From contig JOTC01000001.1 in NCBI GenBank assembly GCA_000746705.1, forward strand, positions 5,327-69,326: a stretch of 64,000 nt of DNA, in the 5' to 3' direction. The stretch's first letter is position 1. Every line of letters starts with the position of its first letter. Below, piece after piece: positions 1-63,095 of the stretch. The DNA is from Marine Group I thaumarchaeote SCGC AAA799-O18 (GTDB lineage Archaea > Thermoproteota > Nitrososphaeria > Nitrososphaerales > Nitrosopumilaceae). The translations under genes and the position numbers were made by a program. The notes under the pieces were generated by a model that saw only the letters and a list, made by a program, of their open reading frames with translations, had not been told where the DNA came from and made no database searches.

Positions 1-98
1 TTTGCCTCTGCCTTCTTCTTTGCCTCTGCCTTCTTCTTTGCCTCTGCCTTCTTCTTTGCCTCTGCCTTCTTCTTTGCCTCTGCCTTCTTCTTTGCCTC
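1..98. repeat. 18-bp tandem repeat, 5 full copies plus a partial
   Basis: The unit tttgcctctgccttcttc is repeated without change at 1-18, 19-36, 37-54, 55-72 and 73-90, then breaks down after about 98. The left edge of the window cuts the array, so its true length is unknown. Read on the minus strand it encodes the hexapeptide AKKKAE over and over inside the Lys-rich gene described next. Confidence 0.95.
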
Positions 99-242
99 TA
101 ATTTTTTAGGTTGAGGTTTTGAAATGTGTTTAGTTTTTTTATTACTAACATTTAATCGAGTTTTTAATTGGTTTAGCTCCTTTTTAATACCCGTAATTTT
201 CTGTGACTTGGTATTTCCTGATTCTTTTTTGCCCTCTACCAT
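1..242 (-). CDS. Lys/Ala/Glu-repeat basic protein, C-terminus off the left edge
   Basis: The minus-strand frame is open from an ATG at 242 to the window edge. It begins MVEGKKESGNTKSQK, continues with a basic helical stretch and then enters AKKKAE hexapeptide repeats. The same frame stays open further upstream to an ATG at 398, which would overlap the divergent ATPase gene, so 242 is the likelier start. Such Lys/Ala tails occur on archaeal ribosomal and nucleic-acid-binding proteins, but nothing visible identifies the family. The folded domain, if any, lies outside the window. Confidence 0.55.
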   Translation of the reverse strand, partial: MVEGKKESGNTKSQKITGIKKELNQLKTRLNVSNKKTKHISKPQPKKLEAKKKAEAKKKAEAKKKAEAKKKAEAKKKAEA

Positions 243-30783: not shown

Positions 30784-31362
30784 TTGTCTGAAACAGATAC
30801 TGTTGTAGAAAAAAAAGAGGATGTGAAAGATATACTGAAGGAAACCACGTCTGAAAAAGCTGTAGAATCTGAAAAAGCTGTAGAATCTGAAAAAGCTGTA
30901 GAATCTGAAAAAGCTGTAGAATCTGAAAAAGCTGTAGAATCTGAAACTGAAGTTAAATCAGAAGCAAAAAAGGAAGTTAAGGAAAAATGGGGTGTTGCTC
31001 ACATTTACAGTAGTTACAATAACACAATTATCCATATTACTGATCTTACGGGTGCTGAAACAGTGTCAATCAGTTCTGGAGGTCACCATGTAAATGCAGA
31101 TAGATATGAATCATCGCCGTTTGCATCTATGAAAGCTGCTGGGACAGTGGTTGAAGCTGCTAAAACAAAGGGATTCAATGGACTGCATATCAAGGTACGA
31201 GCAGTTGGTGGTGTTGATTCGAGAGTACCAGGACCTGGTGCTCAAGCTGCAATAAGAACACTAGCTAGGGGAGGATTCAAAATTGGACGAATTGATGACG
31301 TTACGCCTATTCCACATGATACAACTAGAAAGAAAGGCGGCAAGCGCGGAAGAAGAGTCTAG
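30784..31362 (+). CDS. rps11: Ribosomal protein S11 with repeat-bearing N-terminal extension
   Basis: The C-terminal 125 residues are S11: [60 protein letters not shown] and the basic end [12 protein letters not shown]. Before it lies an acidic leader of about 65 residues with five EKAVES repeats. I favour TTG 30784 ([13 protein letters not shown]), which is about 27 bp from the TATA-like ttttttaaac at 30752-30761; GTG 30775 gives three more residues. S11 binds the 690 loop of 16S rRNA. It is away from rpoD (61069), its usual archaeal neighbour. Confidence 0.93.
30853..30942 (+). repeat. 18-bp tandem repeat, 5 copies, in rps11
   Basis: The unit gaaaaagctgtagaatct occurs five times without change (30853, 30871, 30889, 30907, 30925) and encodes EKAVES each time. 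A degenerate sixth copy (gaaactgaag...) follows. Confidence 0.97.
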
Positions 31363-37956: not shown

Positions 37957-38849
37957 AGTTTTGGTATTAGTGCTATCTTTGTCTTTGCAGTGATTACTAT
38001 GATGCTGACTATGGCTACTGCCAACACAATCATGGCTATTGTTCCAAACTCTGGAACTACGTGACTGCCCACTATTTCAATTCTTTCTGCACCTGAATAA
38101 TATGGGATATGTAGTGTCTTACCCATTTGTTCAAATTCAACCTGTTCGTTATCTACAAGTACAAAGTAACTACCGTCATCAAATGCAGTTATGATATCAG
38201 GATTTAGAACAATCTTCAGTTCGCCGTCATCATCTGCGCCGAACAAGTGAACAAGTAGTGTATCATCGTCAGAGTTTGCGCCAATGTGGTGAATTACACC
38301 GGATGTAACTGAGGCTGTAAACTGGTCAGATATGTCTTCTATTCCACTTGCAGCATGGTCATCACCGTGTCCCATCTCATCACCGTGTTTCATCTCATCA
38401 CCGTGTTTCATCTCATCACCGTGTTTCATCTCATCACCGTGGTCATCACCGTGCTCCTCTTCAGCACCAACCATTACAGTTCCCGCCATCCATGGGTGAA
38501 CCATACAAAAGTAATCAAATGTTCCCGCATCATCAAATACGTGAGAAAATGTAGAACCTGCCATGATTAAGCTGCTGTCAAACACTCCATCTGGTCCATC
38601 TGTTGCTGATCCAGATGTTACTGTGTGAGCCGCAGTATCATTGTTCTCCCAAGTAACCTCACCACCTACATCAAGCGTAACCATACTTGGAATGAAACAA
38701 CCTTCTGCTGTTTCCTCACAGCCCGGAACTGATGAGCCTGGTGCGTTTGTTACTGTGACGCTCATATGGTCTGCAAATGCTGACGGAGTAACAGCTATAA
38801 TTGAAAAAATTGCGAGTAAACCAAATAATGTGTATAATTTCTTCTGCAT
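37953..38849 (-). CDS. Plastocyanin-like blue copper protein with His-rich repeats and PEFG-type tail
   Basis: A 298-residue secreted protein. Signal peptide ends at AFA-DHM (about residue 26). The cupredoxin domain has the copper ligands His in DTAAHTVTSG and Cys/His/Met in YFCMVHPWMAG. Then HGDEMK repeats, a second beta-rich domain, and a C-terminal VVPEFGTIAMIVLAVAIVSI transmembrane segment with basic end, the PEFG-type archaeosortase-like signal of Thaumarchaeota. Small copper proteins are thought to carry electrons in ammonia oxidisers. It follows the regulator gene at 38923 by 73 bp. Confidence 0.92.
   Translation of the reverse strand: MQKKLYTLFGLLAIFSIIAVTPSAFADHMSVTVTNAPGSSVPGCEETAEGCFIPSMVTLDVGGEVTWENNDTAAHTVTSGSATDGPDGVFDSSLIMAGSTFSHVFDDAGTFDYFCMVHPWMAGTVMVGAEEEHGDDHGDEMKHGDEMKHGDEMKHGDEMGHGDDHAASGIEDISDQFTASVTSGVIHHIGANSDDDTLLVHLFGADDDGELKIVLNPDIITAFDDGSYFVLVDNEQVEFEQMGKTLHIPYYSGAERIEIVGSHVVPEFGTIAMIVLAVAIVSIIVITAKTKIALIPKL
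38373..38441 (-). repeat. 18-bp tandem repeat, 3.8 copies, in the plastocyanin gene
   Basis: On the plus strand catctcatcaccgtgttt is found at 38373, 38391 and 38409, with a last copy at 38427 that ends ggtc. On the coding strand it encodes HGDEMK. Histidine, acidic and methionine residues make it a likely copper-binding linker. Confidence 0.95.
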
Positions 38850-43087: not shown

Positions 43088-44602
43088 TTAAGAAATTGTT
43101 ATTATTCCGTTTGTTATCAACCATTGAAGCCCTGAAACAAATGCCGAGTCAGGAATCTGCCCGCTTGCCCACCATCCGGCGTTGTTTTTTATCCAGTTAG
43201 GTATGATGTTTGCTCCAGTTCCTGCATCCTGTTCAGTGGGAGGTATTACGATGATATTATTTGTGATCAACCACTGAATGCCGGAAACAAATGCAGAGTC
43301 AGGAATCTGCCCACTTGCCCACCATTCCGCATTATTTTTTATCCAGTCAGGAATTGAAGTTTCAGGCTCCGTCATTACCGTTGGTTTTGGTGCTAATTTA
43401 GATGGCATAAGCTCAATATCAAAAGTGAAATAACCAAAATACGCAGCGTCTGGAACAGAAAATTCTGGTCCTACACCATAGACAATTATAGCAAATGTTT
43501 CTAATCCAGGCTCTCCTTGCATTAACCAAAACCGCTCAGTTTGCCCTGATGTGGTAAAAAATTTGTCACGACCTTCGTCATCAGCTGCAGAAGCTTTTGG
43601 TATAGTTTTACCATCAACGATATCAACCCTTAAAATGTCATAATGAACTTGACCTTCCCATAATTCACTAGCATAAGCTTTCTTGAATTGTATTCTCAAT
43701 TCAAGCTCACATTCAATTCTAGGTTTTTCAGGACCGTAAAACACAGTAACAGACATTGAATTTGTATTTGTATTTTTTACAAGTTTTACCAAATCATATT
43801 CAGTAGTGCATCCAGATGCTGCATGCATCTGCCCAGTATCCACCACATCGATAAACGGATTTACAGAAACGTTTTGTTCATATTCGTATAACGAAAATCT
43901 ATATTCTTGTGGTGGAATTCCTTCCGTAACCTGTTGCCATGTACTGGCCTTTATTGGGAAAGGAAATTCATCAACAACGTAAATGTGACTTGTCTTGCCG
44001 CCACTCTTCCATCCAATAACTACTGTGTCATATTCACCTGCAGGAACTCTCATAGTTTCCTCACCTATGGGTGATACTTGTTCACCACCGATATTTCCAA
44101 TCTTGCCCCAAGATACAATGTTAAATGCTTTTGGTCCTTTACCTGGCTGATCAATATCTCCAGTAACAAAGCTAGAAAGCCACGCTATTGATGATTTATA
44201 TACAGAACTATACCGAATAATATTTTCACTGACAGTACCTCCAAGAGGTTCAGGTACAACTGTGCCCATATCCATCTGCCCTTTTAGTACCTTGTTTCCA
44301 TCTTCAATTACTACTTGTGCACGTAATTTTTCTTCACCACCTTCAAAAACTGCTTTTTCTATCCAGATTGACATCCAAAACTCTGTGCAATCCTTGAATG
44401 AAGCATGACAAGTTTTAAACTTGAAATAATCACCTACCTTTAGATTTTCTCCTAAAAACCAAGTTCCCGGATTATTCACACCACCAAGACCTGCACCGAT
44501 ACCAGAACCAGCTGTTAGGTGATCCGCAAATACTGCAGGAGCAACACTACCACTAACAAGTACGATAGAGAAAAAAATTACAGATAGTTGTTGGAATCTC
44601 AA
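43088..44602 (-). CDS. Secreted surface protein with two PDWIKNNA C-terminal repeats
   Basis: About 504 residues from TTG 44602 (MRFQQLSVIFFSIVLVSGSV, signal peptide to VFA-DHL); a longer frame runs to 44695. The central part is beta-rich, without enzyme motifs (KVGDYFKFKTCHASFKDC near the start). It ends with two copies of a ~45-residue module, PDWIKNNAEWWASGQIPDSA and PNWIKNNAGWWASGQIPDSA, each followed by FVSG-x-QWLITN. This module is widespread on thaumarchaeal surface proteins. Presumably cell-wall associated. Confidence 0.82.
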   Translation of the reverse strand: MRFQQLSVIFFSIVLVSGSVAPAVFADHLTAGSGIGAGLGGVNNPGTWFLGENLKVGDYFKFKTCHASFKDCTEFWMSIWIEKAVFEGGEEKLRAQVVIEDGNKVLKGQMDMGTVVPEPLGGTVSENIIRYSSVYKSSIAWLSSFVTGDIDQPGKGPKAFNIVSWGKIGNIGGEQVSPIGEETMRVPAGEYDTVVIGWKSGGKTSHIYVVDEFPFPIKASTWQQVTEGIPPQEYRFSLYEYEQNVSVNPFIDVVDTGQMHAASGCTTEYDLVKLVKNTNTNSMSVTVFYGPEKPRIECELELRIQFKKAYASELWEGQVHYDILRVDIVDGKTIPKASAADDEGRDKFFTTSGQTERFWLMQGEPGLETFAIIVYGVGPEFSVPDAAYFGYFTFDIELMPSKLAPKPTVMTEPETSIPDWIKNNAEWWASGQIPDSAFVSGIQWLITNNIIVIPPTEQDAGTGANIIPNWIKNNAGWWASGQIPDSAFVSGLQWLITNGIITIS

Positions 44603-44679
44603 ACACTGTGAATATGTTGAAACATCAGTTAAATGTTTCAAATAAGCAAATATAGAGGAATAGTGATGAATTATTAGAC

Positions 44680-44847
44680 ATGTGCGAATGCCCAAAAATC
44701 CATTTTTACGAGGTTGAATTCAAGCTTGACGGAATGATAGTAGTCCCAACCCATAAAAACTGTGGGGATAGACTTAACGAAAAACAAGCAGATAATTTCC
44801 AAAAGGAACTAGTGAAGTCTTGGGGATTTCAGGAAGAAGAAGATTAA
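44680..44847 (+). CDS. Small protein, 55 aa
   Basis: ATG 44680, TAA 44847. The peptide MCECPKIHFYEVEFKLDGMI continues to VVPTHKNCGDRLNEK and an acidic end EEED. Cys2, Cys4, His8, His25 and Cys28 could bind a metal. It is divergent from the surface-protein gene with 77 bp between, and an AT-rich stretch (caaatatagagg) about 30 bp upstream may be its promoter. Confidence 0.55.
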   Translation: MCECPKIHFYEVEFKLDGMIVVPTHKNCGDRLNEKQADNFQKELVKSWGFQEEED

Positions 44848-57389: not shown

Positions 57390-58208
57390 TTATTGATTAA
57401 CTTCTGTTGCTTGTTTTATAATTTCTCTGATTTTTGAACCTGTTGAAATTGATAGTTCTGAGCATTTTACAAGTTGTTCAAAGGTAAATCCAGCACTGCC
57501 ACCCTTTTGAAGTGCCACAATATTTCCGTCAGAGTTAGTTGTGATTGTTATTCGTGCATCCATACAACCCCATTCATCAAGATTTGGATCAATCATGATG
57601 AATTCACCAATACGACCCATGGTAATTGATATTGGAATAGTAGTAATTGGTGCATCTAATGTCTCACCATCAACTATGGCTGGCTTGTCATTTTTCATTT
57701 CCCATTTTGGAATCTTTGACGTCATAACTGCAGCGACAGAAGCATATGAACAAGCATCAAACAAGTTACCATCATGGTCAGTTACTACATTATCAGCGAA
57801 CAGACCAATGACAAACTTGTCTTCTTCTAAAACCATCTGAGATAAATCAATCATACCACTTTCCCGAATTCCTCTATCAACCACCCTTGCAAGCTCTATC
57901 ACATCAGGAGTAGGTGGACCTGTTTCTGCACTTGGATGAGCTAGTGGAAGAATTTCTGCTGTACAAATAAAGATTCCCTTATCACCCATATCAGGAAAAG
58001 GTTTGTCTGGTTGAATTTTGACTCCGCATACAATCTCAGTATCACCCAATCTAGCTCGTGCAGAACCATTAGCATTTGGTACAACGCCAGTATCAATAGA
58101 TAATGGTCTTACTTCATCTAAACCACGACCATCAATTCTCTTGCCTTCTTGGAGTAAATCTAGAATTTTAGATCTTTTTAGTTTGTCTACAATTGATAGT
58201 TCTACCAT
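57390..58208 (-). CDS. rrp42: Exosome subunit Rrp42
   Basis: A 272-residue RNase PH-fold protein: EGKRIDGRGLDEVRPLSIDT, GSARARLGDTEIVCGVKI and AGFTFEQLVKCSELSI. It forms the hexameric ring with Rrp41 but is catalytically inactive itself. ATG 58208 overlaps the rrp41 stop by one base. Confidence 0.94.
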   Translation of the reverse strand: MVELSIVDKLKRSKILDLLQEGKRIDGRGLDEVRPLSIDTGVVPNANGSARARLGDTEIVCGVKIQPDKPFPDMGDKGIFICTAEILPLAHPSAETGPPTPDVIELARVVDRGIRESGMIDLSQMVLEEDKFVIGLFADNVVTDHDGNLFDACSYASVAAVMTSKIPKWEMKNDKPAIVDGETLDAPITTIPISITMGRIGEFIMIDPNLDEWGCMDARITITTNSDGNIVALQKGGSAGFTFEQLVKCSELSISTGSKIREIIKQATEVNQ

Positions 58209-58945
58209 TAACTATTACCACCTGATGAAAAATATTTTTCACGTAACGAGCTTTTCTGTATTTCATATACTTGTTTACAGCCATCTATACCAATCTCAAT
58301 ACATTTTTTAAATTCATCTGCAGTCAGAATACCATCTAATTGCAAAAGAGTAATTTGACCAAGATTCGGCATATATCCAATTGGCATGTCAGCTTGACCC
58401 GCCTGGTCTTCTTCGTTATTGACATCAAGTATTAAAGTATCAGCAGCTTTTCCTGCAGCACAAGCACATACTAAATCTCGCATTGGAATCCCAGCATCAG
58501 CTAATGCAACCGATGCTGCATCTAATGCAGCACATCTAGTTCCACCATCAGCCTGTAATATTTCAAGATAAACATCAACTGCGGTTCGAGGAAATTTTTC
58601 AAGTATTACAGCGGGTTCTAATGCTTCCTTTACAACTTTACTAATCTCAATTTCTCGTCGTGACGGTGCTGGGTTTTTTCTTTCAGTAACAGAAAAAGGT
58701 TCCATATGATATCTAACTCTTAAAATCCCAGTATCTGGATTTGACATGTGTTTAGGATGAACATCTCTTGGACCAAAAACTCCAGCAAGAATTTTGTTTC
58801 CACCAAATTCAATATATGCAGATCCGTCAGCGTTTTTTAAAACTCCTGTTTTTATAGAAACCTTTCTTGTTTCATTTACTTTACGCCCATCACACCTAAT
58901 CCCATTGTCATCCAGTAATACTACGTCTGTTTTTCTTCCACCCAT
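58208..58945 (-). CDS. rrp41: Exosome catalytic subunit Rrp41
   Basis: A 245-residue RNase PH-fold subunit: DDNGIRCDGRKVNETRKVSI, GSAYIEFGGNKILAGVFGPR, LEILQADGGTRCAALDAASV, with the DAGIPMRDLVCACAAG and DQAGQADMPIGYMPN acidic active-site region. It degrades RNA phosphorolytically from the 3' end. 3 bp after the second rrp4. Confidence 0.95.
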   Translation of the reverse strand: MGGRKTDVVLLDDNGIRCDGRKVNETRKVSIKTGVLKNADGSAYIEFGGNKILAGVFGPRDVHPKHMSNPDTGILRVRYHMEPFSVTERKNPAPSRREIEISKVVKEALEPAVILEKFPRTAVDVYLEILQADGGTRCAALDAASVALADAGIPMRDLVCACAAGKAADTLILDVNNEEDQAGQADMPIGYMPNLGQITLLQLDGILTADEFKKCIEIGIDGCKQVYEIQKSSLREKYFSSGGNS

Positions 58946-58948
58946 TAA

Positions 58949-59140
58949 TTATACACCGTTAGATCCTAACATTTTTTTCACTTTATCTGTCAAATCAGCA
59001 ATATGCGCTTGCTCTTCAACCATTCGAATTGCTGCAAGTGCCTTTAATAATCCATTTGTTTCACTAGAAGAAACTACAATTAACCCATTTTGCCCAATGG
59101 TAATAGTTGTATTAGTAGATGCTTCTATTGTCTGTATCAT
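58949..59140 (-). CDS. rrp4: rrp4 copy 2, KH-domain part in a shifted frame
   Basis: 63 residues from ATG 59140: MIQTIEASTNTTITIGQNGL then VVSSSETNGLLKALAAIRMV. In this frame the coding sense continues upstream as PRLIGKHGS, the KH GxxG loop, until a stop inside the S1/KH linker. It is one base out of frame with the 59112-59633 part. Either a one-base indel broke the gene, or recoding joins them, or a sequencing error is present. Confidence 0.75.
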   Translation of the reverse strand: MIQTIEASTNTTITIGQNGLIVVSSSETNGLLKALAAIRMVEEQAHIADLTDKVKKMLGSNGV

Positions 59141-59233
59141 AGAACCATGTTTTCCTATCAGACGTGGAATTTTTGTATGAGATTTTGATTAATTCTCCAG
59201 AGTCAATCTTTCCCAAGTTCTGACCTGCAATAG
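59079..59233 (-). repeat. Direct repeat, copy B of ~152 bp rrp4 core
   Basis: Identical to 59757-59908 except for three extra bases (tga after tttttgta). It covers the end of the S1 domain, the linker with the frame change, and the KH GxxG region. Flanks are diverged. Confidence 0.95.
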
Positions 59234-59633
59234 ATAACAATGGTTCACGAGTTCTATCACAATTAGCGATTCTTGCTAAAATAAGATCAGATTTATCAAG
59301 CCTTGTTTTCATGTCAATTAGATTAGTATTAGAACCTCTACCAAACACATCTTTAGCTAAAAGCATTCCTTCATAACACGAATTGATATCTGCAAACCAT
59401 GAATTACCATGAATATATTTAATCTTCCCAATTACCAAGTCATCAATTTTTGGTAGATAAATCCCAGTTAATGAGATTACTCTAACACTATCATAAGAAA
59501 CATCAGACAATCCAATAGCAGTAGCTAAAATTCGCTTTCCCTCTAATGTAACGTTTTCACGTAGCCTAAGTGGTGCGGTAGTAATTACATCACCTGGAAG
59601 AACATAACGTTTTTTCTTATCTAAATTTTTCAA
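59112..59633 (-). CDS. rrp4: Exosome cap subunit Rrp4 copy 2, N-terminal and S1 part
   Basis: 173 residues: RYVLPGDVITTAPLRLRENV, GLSDVSYDSVRVISLTGIYL, DINSCYEGMLLAKDVFGRG and REPLLSIAGQNLGKIDSGEL. This is the N-terminal plus S1 part of Rrp4. After GELIKIS the frame leaves the family and ends in a foreign tail (YKNSTSDRKTWFYDT...). The KH domain continues in the +1 frame. Rrp4 caps the exosome ring and binds RNA. ATG 59633 overlaps the stop of copy 1 by 4 bp. Confidence 0.85.
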   Translation of the reverse strand: MKNLDKKKRYVLPGDVITTAPLRLRENVTLEGKRILATAIGLSDVSYDSVRVISLTGIYLPKIDDLVIGKIKYIHGNSWFADINSCYEGMLLAKDVFGRGSNTNLIDMKTRLDKSDLILARIANCDRTREPLLSIAGQNLGKIDSGELIKISYKNSTSDRKTWFYDTDNRSIY

Positions 59634-59818
59634 TTTTTTTCATCCAAAATATTTTGAATACATTCTTCAAGATTAGTATCATCTAATGTTTTATCCATCA
59701 TTTTAATCAATGCAATGGCTTTTTTTAAATCGACATCATTATCAGATTTCAAAATGATTAACCCATTTTGCCCAATGGTAATAGTTGTATTAGTAGATGC
59801 TTCTATTGTCTGTATCAT
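59630..59818 (-). CDS. rrp4: rrp4 copy 1, KH-domain part in a shifted frame
   Basis: 62 residues from ATG 59818: MIQTIEASTNTTITIGQNGL then IILKSDNDVDLKKAIALIKM. The KH loop PRLIGKHGS lies upstream in the same frame, which is +1 relative to the 59790-60296 part. Same situation as copy 2, at the same place in the gene. Confidence 0.75.
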   Translation of the reverse strand: MIQTIEASTNTTITIGQNGLIILKSDNDVDLKKAIALIKMMDKTLDDTNLEECIQNILDEKN

Positions 59819-59908
59819 AGAACCATGTTTTCCTATCAGACGTGGAATTTTTGTAGATTTTGATTAATTCTCCAGAGTCAATCTTTCCCAAGTTCTGACC
59901 TGCAATAG
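59757..59908 (-). repeat. Direct repeat, copy A of ~152 bp rrp4 core
   Basis: Partner of 59079-59233, about 675 bp away in the same orientation. Every base matches apart from the 3-bp gap. Confidence 0.95.
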
Positions 59909-60296
59909 TAATCAAAGGGTCTCTTGTATCACCTGCATTTACAATTCTTGCAGCTATAATGTCACCTACACCAAGCTTTAAGGAAAGATCATCATTAGCA
60001 GGCGAATAATCTCTTCCAAAGATATCACTTGCTGGAAGCATGGATGAATAGTAAGAATTTATGTCTACTTCCCATGATAATGAGCTATGTGATATGACTT
60101 TCCCAATAACAAAATTATCAATTTCAGGAATGTAAAATCCAGTCAAAGGAATAACATTGACTCGGTTATCTTCTATCTCACAAAATCCAATTGCAGTAGA
60201 CATAATCTTATCACCTTCAAGTATCACATTTTGTTCTGGAGTGTAGGAACCAGTGACAATGATATCACCAGGTATTACAAATTCGTTTTGGATCAT
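59790..60296 (-). CDS. rrp4: Exosome cap subunit Rrp4 copy 1, N-terminal and S1 part
   Basis: 168 residues: QNEFVIPGDIIVTGSYTPEQ, RVNVIPLTGFYIPEIDNFVI, DINSYYSSMLPASDIFGRDY and DPLITIAGQNLGKIDSGELI. Then, as in copy 2, the frame runs into a foreign tail while the KH domain continues in +1. The N-terminal halves of copies 1 and 2 are clearly paralogous but far from identical. ATG 60296 overlaps the SBDS stop by 4 bp, the usual archaeal SBDS-rrp4-rrp41-rrp42 order. Confidence 0.85.
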   Translation of the reverse strand: MIQNEFVIPGDIIVTGSYTPEQNVILEGDKIMSTAIGFCEIEDNRVNVIPLTGFYIPEIDNFVIGKVISHSSLSWEVDINSYYSSMLPASDIFGRDYSPANDDLSLKLGVGDIIAARIVNAGDTRDPLITIAGQNLGKIDSGELIKIYKNSTSDRKTWFYDTDNRSIY

Positions 60297-60982
60297 TTCA
60301 GCATCTCAACAAAGGCAGTGCCTTTAGTTATAGCACCTAACCTATCAATCACATTTGGTCTTGCTGCAGCTGGTATTTCTAGTATCGCTTTCAAGGACCC
60401 GTTTGGTTGCCAATCTTCTTTTTTCAAAACGCCTGTTGACTTTAAGACGGAATAAGATTGTGCAACATACTGAGCTGGGATAGAAATTTCTAATAAAAGA
60501 TTTTCAGATTTTAATGGGATGATTGAACGTAAATTCTCAATAATATCTTTGACTTGTTCTTCCACTCTTTTAAATGGATCAATGCTAACACTAGCTTCCT
60601 TCAAAGCCTGCTCAACTCTAAGTGGGGGGTGAGGTAAATGAGAACGTGGATCAACAAAAGTCTTAGTAATAAATGTGATTAACTGTTTACGTTTTTCTAT
60701 AGTCATCTTCCGACGCTGCTCAGTAGTTAGGTTAAGATCTCCTTTCTGTAAGATTTTTTCGGCAATAGTTAATGCATCTTCTGTTTTAAACGCCTTCTGT
60801 AATTTTTCAGATGAGGCTCTAGTACCCTTACTTGAATCCGAATAGATTTCATCAGATACTAGAACAGATGCTATTTCTTTTATTTTCCCAAGTTTATAAT
60901 CAAGAGCTGAATCAGGTTTAACCAATATCTCAAATTTGTTACCCTCAAACGTGTATTTTACCACAGTAAGCTTCACAGTCAT
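60293..60982 (-). CDS. sbds: Ribosome maturation protein SBDS
   Basis: About 229 residues from ATG 60982 (MTVKLTVVKYTFEGNKFEIL); an in-frame ATG at 61003 adds seven residues. KLQKAFKTEDALTIAEKILQ, LTTEQRRKMTIEKRKQLITF and PHPPLRVEQALKEASVSIDP are the SBDS marks. It helps release aIF6 from the large subunit. First gene of the exosome operon; divergent from rpoD with 65-90 bp between. Confidence 0.93.
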   Translation of the reverse strand: MTVKLTVVKYTFEGNKFEILVKPDSALDYKLGKIKEIASVLVSDEIYSDSSKGTRASSEKLQKAFKTEDALTIAEKILQKGDLNLTTEQRRKMTIEKRKQLITFITKTFVDPRSHLPHPPLRVEQALKEASVSIDPFKRVEEQVKDIIENLRSIIPLKSENLLLEISIPAQYVAQSYSVLKSTGVLKKEDWQPNGSLKAILEIPAAARPNVIDRLGAITKGTAFVEMLK

Positions 60983-61068
60983 GTTGATAACAATTTGTGA
61001 CATGAATATTTATCTATAGTTTACACCAGCTAGATTTTTATTTGGATTTTTGGATTTTTTAATAAGAT

Positions 61069-61713: not shown

Positions 61714-62061
61714 ATGATAAATCGAGCAGTCTTATCTTTAGTCAAGGAACTTAAACAAGCCTCAAAGAAAAATAAAGCTCCGCTTTGGGCCAAACTTGCA
61801 AACCTTGCTTTAAAACCATCTTCATCAATGCGAGTTGTAAACTTGACAAGAATAGATAAGGTTACAAAAAATGATGACGTTCTCATTGTACCTGGAAAAG
61901 TACTTGGAACTGGAAATATATCTCATAAAATCACTCTTTGTTCATTTTCTATCTCCACAACAGCTGCAAAGAAGATAATTAAATCTGGAGGAAAAATAAT
62001 AAGATCATCTGATATGATTCAAAAATATCCAACAGGAAAAGGTGTGATGCTAATTGGTTAA
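61714..62061 (+). CDS. rpl18e: Ribosomal protein L18e
   Basis: A 115-residue protein: LKQASKKNKAPLWAKLANLA, VVNLTRIDKVTKNDDVLIVP, GKVLGTGNISHKITLCSFSI. Large-subunit protein. ATG 61714; the stop TAA at 62059-62061 overlaps a TTG (62054) that starts the next frame, the coupling expected between rpl18e and rpl13. Confidence 0.94.
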   Translation: MINRAVLSLVKELKQASKKNKAPLWAKLANLALKPSSSMRVVNLTRIDKVTKNDDVLIVPGKVLGTGNISHKITLCSFSISTTAAKKIIKSGGKIIRSSDMIQKYPTGKGVMLIG

Positions 62062-62212
62062 CCAACAAAAAAAACCAGTAGATAAACCTGCTGCAAAAGC
62101 TAAACCTGCTGCAAAAGCTAAACCTGCTGCAAAAGCTAAACCTGCTGCAAAAGCTAAACCTGCTGCAAAAGCTAAACCTGCAAAGCTAAACCTGCTGCAA
62201 AAGCTAAACTAG
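62054..62212 (+). CDS. Repeat leader that starts rpl13 but goes out of frame
   Basis: TTG 62054 overlaps the rpl18e stop and reads MVNQQKKPVDK, then PAAKAK repeats; after a repeat that lacks four bases the frame becomes PAKLNLLQKLN and ends at TAG 62212. Without the 4-bp loss the leader would read directly into TPIVVDGTNHIAGR of L13. So this is the natural N-terminus of L13, either truly frameshifted or mis-sequenced in the repeat. Confidence 0.6.
   Translation: MVNQQKKPVDKPAAKAKPAAKAKPAAKAKPAAKAKPAAKAKPAKLNLLQKLN
62084..62205 (+). repeat. 18-bp tandem repeat before rpl13, one copy shortened to 14 bp
   Basis: The unit aaacctgctgcaaaagct occurs at 62084, 62102, 62120, 62138 and 62156, then a 14-bp version aaacctgcaaagct at 62174-62187, then a full copy at 62188-62205. 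The short copy changes the frame. Confidence 0.97.
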
Positions 62213-62238
62213 TTGACAAAACTAGTACGCCTATTGTT

Positions 62239-62652
62239 GTGGATGGAACAAACCATATTGCTGGAAGGCTTTCTTCAAATGTTGCAAAATTACTACTTCA
62301 AGGAAATAGAGTCACAATAATAAATTCTGATAAAATAATGATTAGTGGAGAAAAAAATTCTATTGTTGGTGAATACAAAGATTTTCTTAGAATTGCAAGT
62401 ATTTTACATCCAAAACATGGTCCATTTCATCCTCGTAGACCGGATACTATAATCAGTAGAATGATACGAGGTATGTTGCCAAGGAAAAAACCATCAGGTA
62501 AGGAAGCTCTTAAAAGGTTAAGAGCTTATGTTGGTGCTCCAAAAGAATTAAAAACATTCAAAAAAATACAGTTTGAAAAGGCAAGGATTAGAAAATCAAG
62601 TGCATATTATGTGAGCATGAGTGAACTTAGTAAAAACGTAGGGTGGAATTAA
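62239..62652 (+). CDS. rpl13: Ribosomal protein L13
   Basis: 137 residues from GTG 62239, the only start in this frame after the repeat: MDGTNHIAGRLSSNVAKLLL, RVTIINSDKIMISGEKNSIV, HPRRPDTIISRMIRGMLPRK. L13 normally has a first strand (IVVD) just before this, which would lie upstream of the GTG. The frame continues upstream through TPIVV and KLVDKTS to the last full repeat, so the real start is probably 62054. Large-subunit protein; stop overlaps rps9 ATG by one base. Confidence 0.88.
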   Translation: MDGTNHIAGRLSSNVAKLLLQGNRVTIINSDKIMISGEKNSIVGEYKDFLRIASILHPKHGPFHPRRPDTIISRMIRGMLPRKKPSGKEALKRLRAYVGAPKELKTFKKIQFEKARIRKSSAYYVSMSELSKNVGWN

Positions 62653-63095
62653 TGGCTAGAGATGAAATTTATTTTGCAACAAGAAAAACTGCCAAAGCAC
62701 ATGTATACATTACTAAAGGTAATGGTAAAATTAGAATAAACAACGTACCGATTGAAATGTTTCAACCAAAAATTGCTCAAGAGGTGATTTTAATCCCTAT
62801 TGAAATTTCCGAAGATTTGAGAAATAAAGTGAATATTTCAGTCAGAGTTAGAGGTGGTGGTTTTATGGGTCAAGCATATGCATCTGCTTCAGGTATATCA
62901 CGTGCATTAATAGGATGGACTAAAAACAAAAAAGATGTTAAGGAACACCCATTTACAAAATCTCAGAGAAATATTCTCAAAACGAAGATTGATGAATTTG
63001 ATAGATATCTCATAAAAGGTGATGCGAGAAGAAAAGAACCAAAGAAATTTGGTGGACCAGGCGCTAGAACAAGAAAGCAAAAATCATACCGTTAG
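62652..63095 (+). CDS. rps9: Ribosomal protein S9
   Basis: 147 residues from ATG 62652 (MARDEIYFATRKTAKAHVYI), which overlaps the rpl13 stop (TAATG). VRVRGGGFMGQAYASASGIS and the basic end KKFGGPGARTRKQKSYR are S9. Its C-terminal tail contacts tRNA in the P site. The archaeal operon order L13-S9 is kept; rpoN, often next, is not present here. Confidence 0.95.
   Translation: MARDEIYFATRKTAKAHVYITKGNGKIRINNVPIEMFQPKIAQEVILIPIEISEDLRNKVNISVRVRGGGFMGQAYASASGISRALIGWTKNKKDVKEHPFTKSQRNILKTKIDEFDRYLIKGDARRKEPKKFGGPGARTRKQKSYR

What the first reader, a model, noticed from the sequence alone, without database searches (positions are those of the whole stretch)
58949..60296. Tandem rrp4 genes share a near-identical 152-bp core and the same frame change
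Two Rrp4 paralogues with clearly different N-terminal halves and different ends are identical over ~152 bp (59757-59908 and 59079-59233, apart from a 3-bp gap). In both, the KH domain (PRLIGKHGS) is +1 to the S1 part at the same point. Gene conversion explains the identity. The shared frame change means either that a broken copy was spread, that a programmed +1 shift or internal start makes a separate KH protein, or that the assembly is wrong. Two Rrp4 types could give mixed exosome caps.
Basis: partly seen in the sequence, partly recalled or inferred. Interest (0 to 1): 0.8.

Follow-up and report, generated by a model that had tools for sequence, protein, structure and literature searches.

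The report
Twin exosome genes swapping KH core
A marine archaeon carries two neighbouring, clearly different versions of the RNA-exosome cap gene rrp4 that appear to copy a short RNA-binding segment between each other; the frame break seen in both copies is most likely an assembly fault, because near-identical proteins from other public sequence are unbroken.

Summary
In detail: tandem rrp4A (59630-60296, -) and rrp4B (58949-59633, -) share a 152/155-bp core identical but for a 3-bp gap, and in both the KH part lies in the +1 frame. The pair is real: 8 of 250 related genomes carry SBDS-rrp4A-rrp4B-rrp41-rrp42, both genes in frame in 8 of 8. Gene conversion of the core is supported: third-codon positions match 50/50 in the core against 53/129 in the N-half, and 6 of 9 pairs have an identical run longer than in any of 1000 shuffles. 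The frame change is probably not biology: intact proteins P0001 and P0121 equal the window's two frames at 221/221 and 227/227 residues; the window lacks 5 nt (A) and 2 nt (B). None of 120 listed hits to the shifted protein has its tail. A third break nearby lies in another repeat (uL13). Programmed shifting and a separate KH protein are not supported. What remains interesting: a second Rrp4 type under purifying selection whose KH GXXG loop is altered in 8 of 8 relatives' A copies.

The parts
59630..60296 (-). rrp4A: first Rrp4 paralogue (NTD-S1-KH); read in two frames in this sequence
   Evidence: twin P0001 intact at 223 aa
58949..59633 (-). rrp4B: second Rrp4 paralogue, next to rrp41; read in two frames in this sequence
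   Evidence: twin P0121 intact at 228 aa
59757..59908 (-). shared core in rrp4A (end of S1, linker, front half of KH with the GXXG loop)
   Evidence: corresponds to residues 134-186 of P0121
59079..59233 (-). shared core in rrp4B, identical to the A core but for a 3-bp gap
59855..59855 (-). frame break in rrp4A (5 nt fewer than the intact twin)
59177..59177 (-). frame break in rrp4B (2 nt fewer than the intact twin)
60293..61003 (-). SBDS ribosome assembly factor, upstream neighbour; overlaps the rrp4A start
   Evidence: TIGR00291, 212.9 bits, cut-off 126.55
58208..58945 (-). rrp41 (exosome ring)
   Evidence: TIGR02065, 365.6 bits, cut-off 318.7
57390..58208 (-). rrp42 (exosome ring)
   Evidence: NF003282, 281.4 bits, cut-off 280
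62083..62209 (+). 18-bp tandem array in the uL13 N-terminal extension; one unit is 14 bp, which breaks the frame: a third frame break in a repeat of this stretch

Best explanation
In the organism both rrp4 genes are intact. They are an old tandem duplication inside the SBDS-rrp4-rrp41-rrp42 operon of one clade of marine group I archaea. The segment around the KH GXXG loop has been overwritten between the copies by gene conversion, in this lineage so recently that the two cores are identical. The near-identical ~155-bp repeat then confused the assembly or its consensus, which dropped 5 nt in one copy and 2 nt in the other at the same spot and so broke both frames. Shown: the pair, its conservation, the conversion signature, the intact twin proteins. 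Inferred: that the lesion is technical, and that both proteins enter the exosome cap.
For: Pair in the order SBDS-A-B-41-42 with both frames open in 8 of 8 pair genomes, out of 250 searched. Flank tree: A and B are separate clades with 100/100 support and joining W_A with W_B is rejected (p-AU 6e-62); core tree: W_A joins W_B (91/82) and the A label needs 6 changes instead of 1. Third-position identity within a genome is 81-86% in the core against 35-40% in the N-half for G055, G001, G060, G002, and 50/50 against 53/129 in the window (codon phase taken from one reference row). Exact runs exceed all 1000 shuffles in 6 of 9 pairs: window, G055, G001, G060, G002, G080; the best 150-column window is reached by 0 to 6 of 5000 shuffles in all 9. 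P0001 and P0121 equal the window's two frames residue for residue, 221/221 and 227/227, and only add the junction residues; both rows name a longest contig of 9606 bases. P0002 (210 aa, a different front) also reads through the junction. No row of the 120 listed aligns to more than 88% of the shifted 168-aa protein, and none of 274 proteins held contains the shifted tail. In 37.4-64.0 kb (24,168 bp covered by relatives' proteins) the screen found no other true break; the one further break lies in the uL13 tandem repeat.
Against: No reads were at hand, so the artefact is inferred. Three other repeats (30850-30946, 38359-38441, 43110-43354) lie in open frames, so repeats do not always break here; 1-37.4 kb was not screened for breaks. 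Why both lesions fall at one spot inside the repeat rather than at its edges is not explained. On conversion: G074, G078 and G079 show no long identical run; in the core tree one A clade is not formally rejected (p-AU 0.059) and starred branches force only 1 change; bases shared by A and B of one lineage and by no other copy number 6 of 152 core columns in the window but only 0 or 1 in each of the other six lineages, so repeated conversion elsewhere rests on runs and third positions, not on private sites.
Confidence: 0.82

Rival explanations
1. The frame breaks are real in this strain: one copy suffered a small deletion, conversion carried it to the other, and a further 3-bp change followed; the cell lives with C-terminally truncated Rrp4s or Csl4 caps.
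For: The lesions sit at the same place inside the converted segment, as conversion of a broken copy would give. Csl4 is present in 7 of the 8 pair genomes, so a cap without intact Rrp4 is conceivable.
Against: Lesions differ (2 against 5 nt). Proteins identical to both halves are intact elsewhere. None of the 120 listed hits has the shifted tail.
Confidence: 0.12
2. Programmed +1 frameshifting at TCAAAATCT(CAT)ACAAAAA makes full-length Rrp4 from both genes.
For: Both genes have the same +1 offset despite a 3-bp length difference.
Against: Not conserved: 8 of 8 pair genomes and the twins P0001 and P0121 need no shift. No stop codon sits at the site in the upstream frame: that frame runs 21 further codons in each gene.
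Confidence: 0.02
3. An internal start makes a separate KH protein from each gene.
For: ORFs of 62 and 63 aa begin with ATG in the KH frame.
Against: They begin at MIQTIEAS, after the GXXG loop, so no whole KH domain results; no ATG, GTG or TTG lies earlier in that frame. The 8 pair genomes make one uninterrupted protein from each gene.
Confidence: 0.02
4. The identity of the two cores is itself an assembly artefact (a collapsed repeat copied into both genes), not conversion. This concerns the identity, not the frame, and can hold together with the best explanation of the frame.
For: Hybrid proteins suggest that the repeat may trouble assemblies: by a crude pattern sort 47 of 274 held proteins look like A-front/B-tail and 2 like B-front/A-tail; true deletions would look the same.
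Against: The twin proteins, apparently from one 9606-bp contig, also share the core; relatives with their own, different sequences show excess identity in the same segment.
Confidence: 0.08

Closest known systems
mtrA-1/mtrA-2 of methanogens (PMC4632066; abstract, opening text and outline seen)
   Same: Ancient duplicates in an operon for one complex; only the shared domain is homogenised by long-lasting gene conversion while other parts differ.
   Different: Different gene and complex; here the tract is ~155 bp around the KH GXXG loop, and A copies of other lineages have altered that loop.
Archaeal exosome Rrp4 cap protein (solved chains 3l7z, 2jeb, 2je6, 2z0s, 2ba0, 8xie)
   Same: Three-domain Rrp4 (NTD, S1, KH), here encoded next to rrp41 and rrp42; P0121 matches these chains at E 4.2e-36 to 2e-31.
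   Different: Two Rrp4 types in one operon. A passage of PMC4227792 says that in vivo the exosome holds both Rrp4 and Csl4, and that complexes with homotrimeric Rrp4 or Csl4 caps are reconstituted in vitro.
Set of 26 prokaryotic genes with long-lasting concerted evolution (PMC6053082; abstract and found passages)
   Same: Recurrent conversion between paralogues, 22 of 26 in stable protein complexes.
   Different: The terms exosome and Rrp4 occur 0 times in its main text; its supplements were not looked at.

Membership tests
Archaeal Rrp4 (NF003181) | Score over the curated cut-off (200 bits) | tested here: met
   Intact twins P0001 218.4 and P0121 226.7 bits; the window's own two-frame genes were not scored whole.
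Archaeal Rrp4 (NF003181) | NTD, S1 and KH in one open frame | tested here: not met
   Not met in the window: the N-part ORFs hit ECR1_N_2 and S1 models but no KH. Met in twins P0001 and P0121; open full-length frames in 8 of 8 pair genomes.
Archaeal Rrp4 (NF003181) | KH loop of the VPRVIGXXG kind (PMC11201974, passages; the same passage says that the loop is absent in the S. sol and S. cer structures) | tested here: met
   IPRLIGKHG in both window copies, in the +1 frame. B copies keep GKHG or GKRG in 8 of 8 relatives, A copies a GXXG in 0 of 8.
Archaeal Rrp4 (NF003181) | Assembly into the Rrp41/Rrp42 ring cap | not testable with these tools
   Only gene order and family membership.
Gene conversion / concerted evolution | Paralogues more alike within a genome at silent sites, limited to a tract | tested here: met
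   Window, G055, G001, G060, G002 clearly; G080 by run length; G074, G078, G079 not by run length; private shared sites 6 in the window, 0 or 1 in other lineages.
Programmed +1 frameshift gene | Frame offset conserved in relatives | tested here: not met
   0 of 8 pair genomes and neither twin has it.

The most novel reading that the evidence does not exclude
This marine archaeal clade builds its exosome cap from two Rrp4 types: B with a complete KH domain, and A, which keeps the ring-binding NTD and S1 under purifying selection but in the sampled relatives alters or deletes the KH GXXG loop. Gene conversion in the KH core competes with that decay, so lineages switch A between RNA-gripping and loop-less forms, and mixed caps (with Csl4 as a third kind) tune RNA choice.
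Probability: 0.35. Interest if true: 0.55.

Novelty: new variant of a known kind. Interest (0 to 1): 0.33.

Why it matters
The eukaryotic exosome has three different S1/KH cap proteins (start of abstract of PMC10411580, listing), whereas archaeal caps are described with Rrp4, Csl4 and DnaG (PMC4227792, start of abstract). A clade that keeps a second, partly divergent Rrp4 is a natural case of cap diversification in progress. The conversion tract is also a warning: sequence records show broken or hybrid rrp4 genes at this segment, which can mislead frameshift or marker-gene surveys.

Tried and rejected
Considered and rejected: programmed +1 shift, internal start, spread of one broken copy (see rivals). 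Replacement of Csl4 by the second Rrp4: Pfam PF10447 was uninformative (9 of 250 genomes, 5 over its cut-off); NCBIfam NF034126 (Csl4) matches 219 of 250, 212 over its cut-off, and 7 of the 8 pair genomes over the cut-off (G001 had no match; it may be incomplete), so A does not replace Csl4. That model also rings in 11 of 14 control genomes, over the cut-off in 2. A generally error-rich assembly was looked for and not found: no other true break in 24,168 covered bp of 37.4-64.0 kb; rows near 63090 are antisense ORFs and those at 59610 and 59670 cross-hits between the two copies. One search masked low complexity and could not see the uL13 break, which came. Rrp4 genes in two frames also occur in other assemblies (second copy of G028, G162, G186), but their pieces meet near residues 52-64 or 128-130 of P0001, not at the window's 147. 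dN/dS is my own Nei-Gojobori script on short regions.

Paper searches for a tandem rrp4 pair in these archaea: titles and abstract starts of the listed rows were seen, 3 of 3, 10 of 10, 15 of 208, 10 of 15, 12 of 42, 10 of 585; none reports one there. Only open-licence texts are held, so this is weak. Read: PMC4632066 abstract, opening and outline; PMC6053082, PMC4227792 and PMC11201974 found passages only.

Full report
What is there. The stretch 57.4-61.0 kb on the minus strand is an exosome operon: SBDS (60293-61003), rrp4A (59630-60296), rrp4B (58949-59633), rrp41 (58208-58945), rrp42 (57390-58208). The four named loci found with the A front (66-70% identical) are three marine group I thaumarchaeotes and one thaumarchaeote MAG. 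rrp4A and rrp4B share a core at 59757-59908 and 59079-59233 that is identical but for a 3-bp gap, while the N-halves are 56% and the C-tails 46% identical.

The pair is real and old. Of 250 genomes of the same family, 237 have a match to P0001. Eight (G001, G002, G055, G060, G074, G078, G079, G080) carry two full-length Rrp4 types side by side. The other 18 genomes with more than one match were listed row by row: the extra matches are Csl4, other KH-domain proteins, or partial or split Rrp4 pieces. All eight have the order SBDS-A-B-41-42 and both frames open. On the flanks, the nine A copies and the nine B copies (eight genomes plus the window) are two clades, each with 100/100 support. A N-halves show dN well below dS between genomes (for example 0.064 against 0.435, G055 and G060), so A is a kept gene; the A tail looks relaxed (0.138 against 0.143 in that pair), unlike the B tail (0.03 against 0.115).

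The core is a conversion tract. In the window, third codon positions agree at 50/50 in the core against 53/129 in the N-half and 18/43 in the tail. In G055, G001, G060 and G002 the core agrees at 81-86% of third positions against 35-40% in the N-half, in G080 at 67% against 37%; G074, G078 and G079 are weaker, 48-59% against 40-44%. Runs of identity exceed each of 1000 shuffles in six of nine pairs; G074, G078 and G079 fail that test. In the core tree W_A and W_B are sisters (91/82) and the A/B label needs six changes instead of one, though one A clade is not formally rejected (p-AU 0.059) and starred branches force only one change. Sites private to one lineage yet shared by its A and B number 6 of 152 in the window's core against 4 of 388 in its N-half, and 0 or 1 in the core of each other lineage. 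So a recent conversion in the window's lineage is strongly supported; conversion in the relatives is supported by runs and silent sites but not by private sites. The direction was not tested. The tract covers residues 134-186 of P0121; the KH_1 model matches 149-204 of that protein, so it holds the front of the KH domain with the GXXG loop.

The frame break is seen only in this sequence, as far as the searches went. Searching with the read-through proteins gave P0001 (223 aa) and P0121 (228 aa), which equal the window's two frames at 221 of 221 and 227 of 227 residues and add only the junction residues; the window lacks 5 nt in A and 2 nt in B against them. Both rows name a longest contig of 9606 bases, so they probably come from one contig (inference). 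Searching with the shifted 168-aa protein, none of the 120 listed rows (of 2060 matches) aligns to more than 88% of it; a record with the same shift should rank at the top of that list (inference). None of 274 held proteins contains the shifted tail. A screen of 24,168 covered bp between 37.4 and 64.0 kb found no other genuine break, but the uL13 gene is broken in its 18-bp tandem repeat, where one unit is 14 bp long; relatives read through. So the three breaks known in this stretch lie in repeats, though three other repeats in the window lie in open frames. I conclude that the breaks are technical, most likely at the assembly or gap-closing step (inference; no reads were at hand).

Why not recoding. 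A programmed shift should be conserved; it is absent in 8 of 8 pair genomes and in both twins. The upstream frame has no stop at the site. An internal start would begin after the GXXG loop. Lesions of two lengths at one site speak against simple spreading of one broken copy.

What is left. A copies in 0 of 8 relatives keep a GXXG loop (five lack three residues there, three have changed residues), while B copies keep it in 8 of 8 (alignment). P0001 and most of the near metagenomic A proteins that I viewed do have GKHG. PMC11201974 (passages) says that the NTD mainly binds the ring and that the KH loop is kept only to a degree, being absent in two other Rrp4 structures, so loss of the motif need not mean loss of function. 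It is reasonable, but untested, that A is a second cap protein with a weakened KH domain, and that conversion with B now and then restores it. Csl4 is found in 7 of 8 pair genomes, so A does not replace it. The closest precedent in kind is mtrA-1/mtrA-2 in methanogens (PMC4632066, abstract).

Noticed in passing
window 62054-62652: The uL13 gene's N-terminal extension is an 18-bp (AKAKPA) tandem array in which one unit is 14 bp, putting the start and the body in different frames; relatives have one open frame.
   Followed up: partly
metagenome proteins P0036, P0054, P0064 and others; P0135, P0138: Proteins that join an A-type front to a B-type tail (47 of 274 held by a crude sort) and 2 the reverse, joined in the shared core: deletions by recombination or assembly chimeras. 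Rows for P0064 and P0054 name contigs of 21,845 and 12,971 bases.
   Followed up: partly
L042 (G074) rrp4B: The G074 B copy is close to that of G002 in core and tail (dS 0.055 and 0.073) but not in its N-half (dS 0.646), and a third Rrp4 gene lies at the start of contig C77: recombination or a chimeric bin.
   Followed up: no
P0139, P0141, P0241: Other rrp4 copies with in-frame losses right at the KH GXXG loop (PRLI-IESST; PRLI-NATIT), again inside the shared core.
   Followed up: no
G028 contig C7, G162 contig C61, G186 contig C14: Rrp4 genes read in two frames in other assemblies, at other places than in the window; G028 has a full-length copy as well.
   Followed up: no
window 43110-43354: A 95-bp direct repeat (86% identical, 150 bp apart) within one open frame at 43088-44695; by eye richer in G+C than its surroundings.
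   Followed up: no
window 1-99: The window begins inside an 18-bp tandem array (5.5 exact copies).
   Followed up: no
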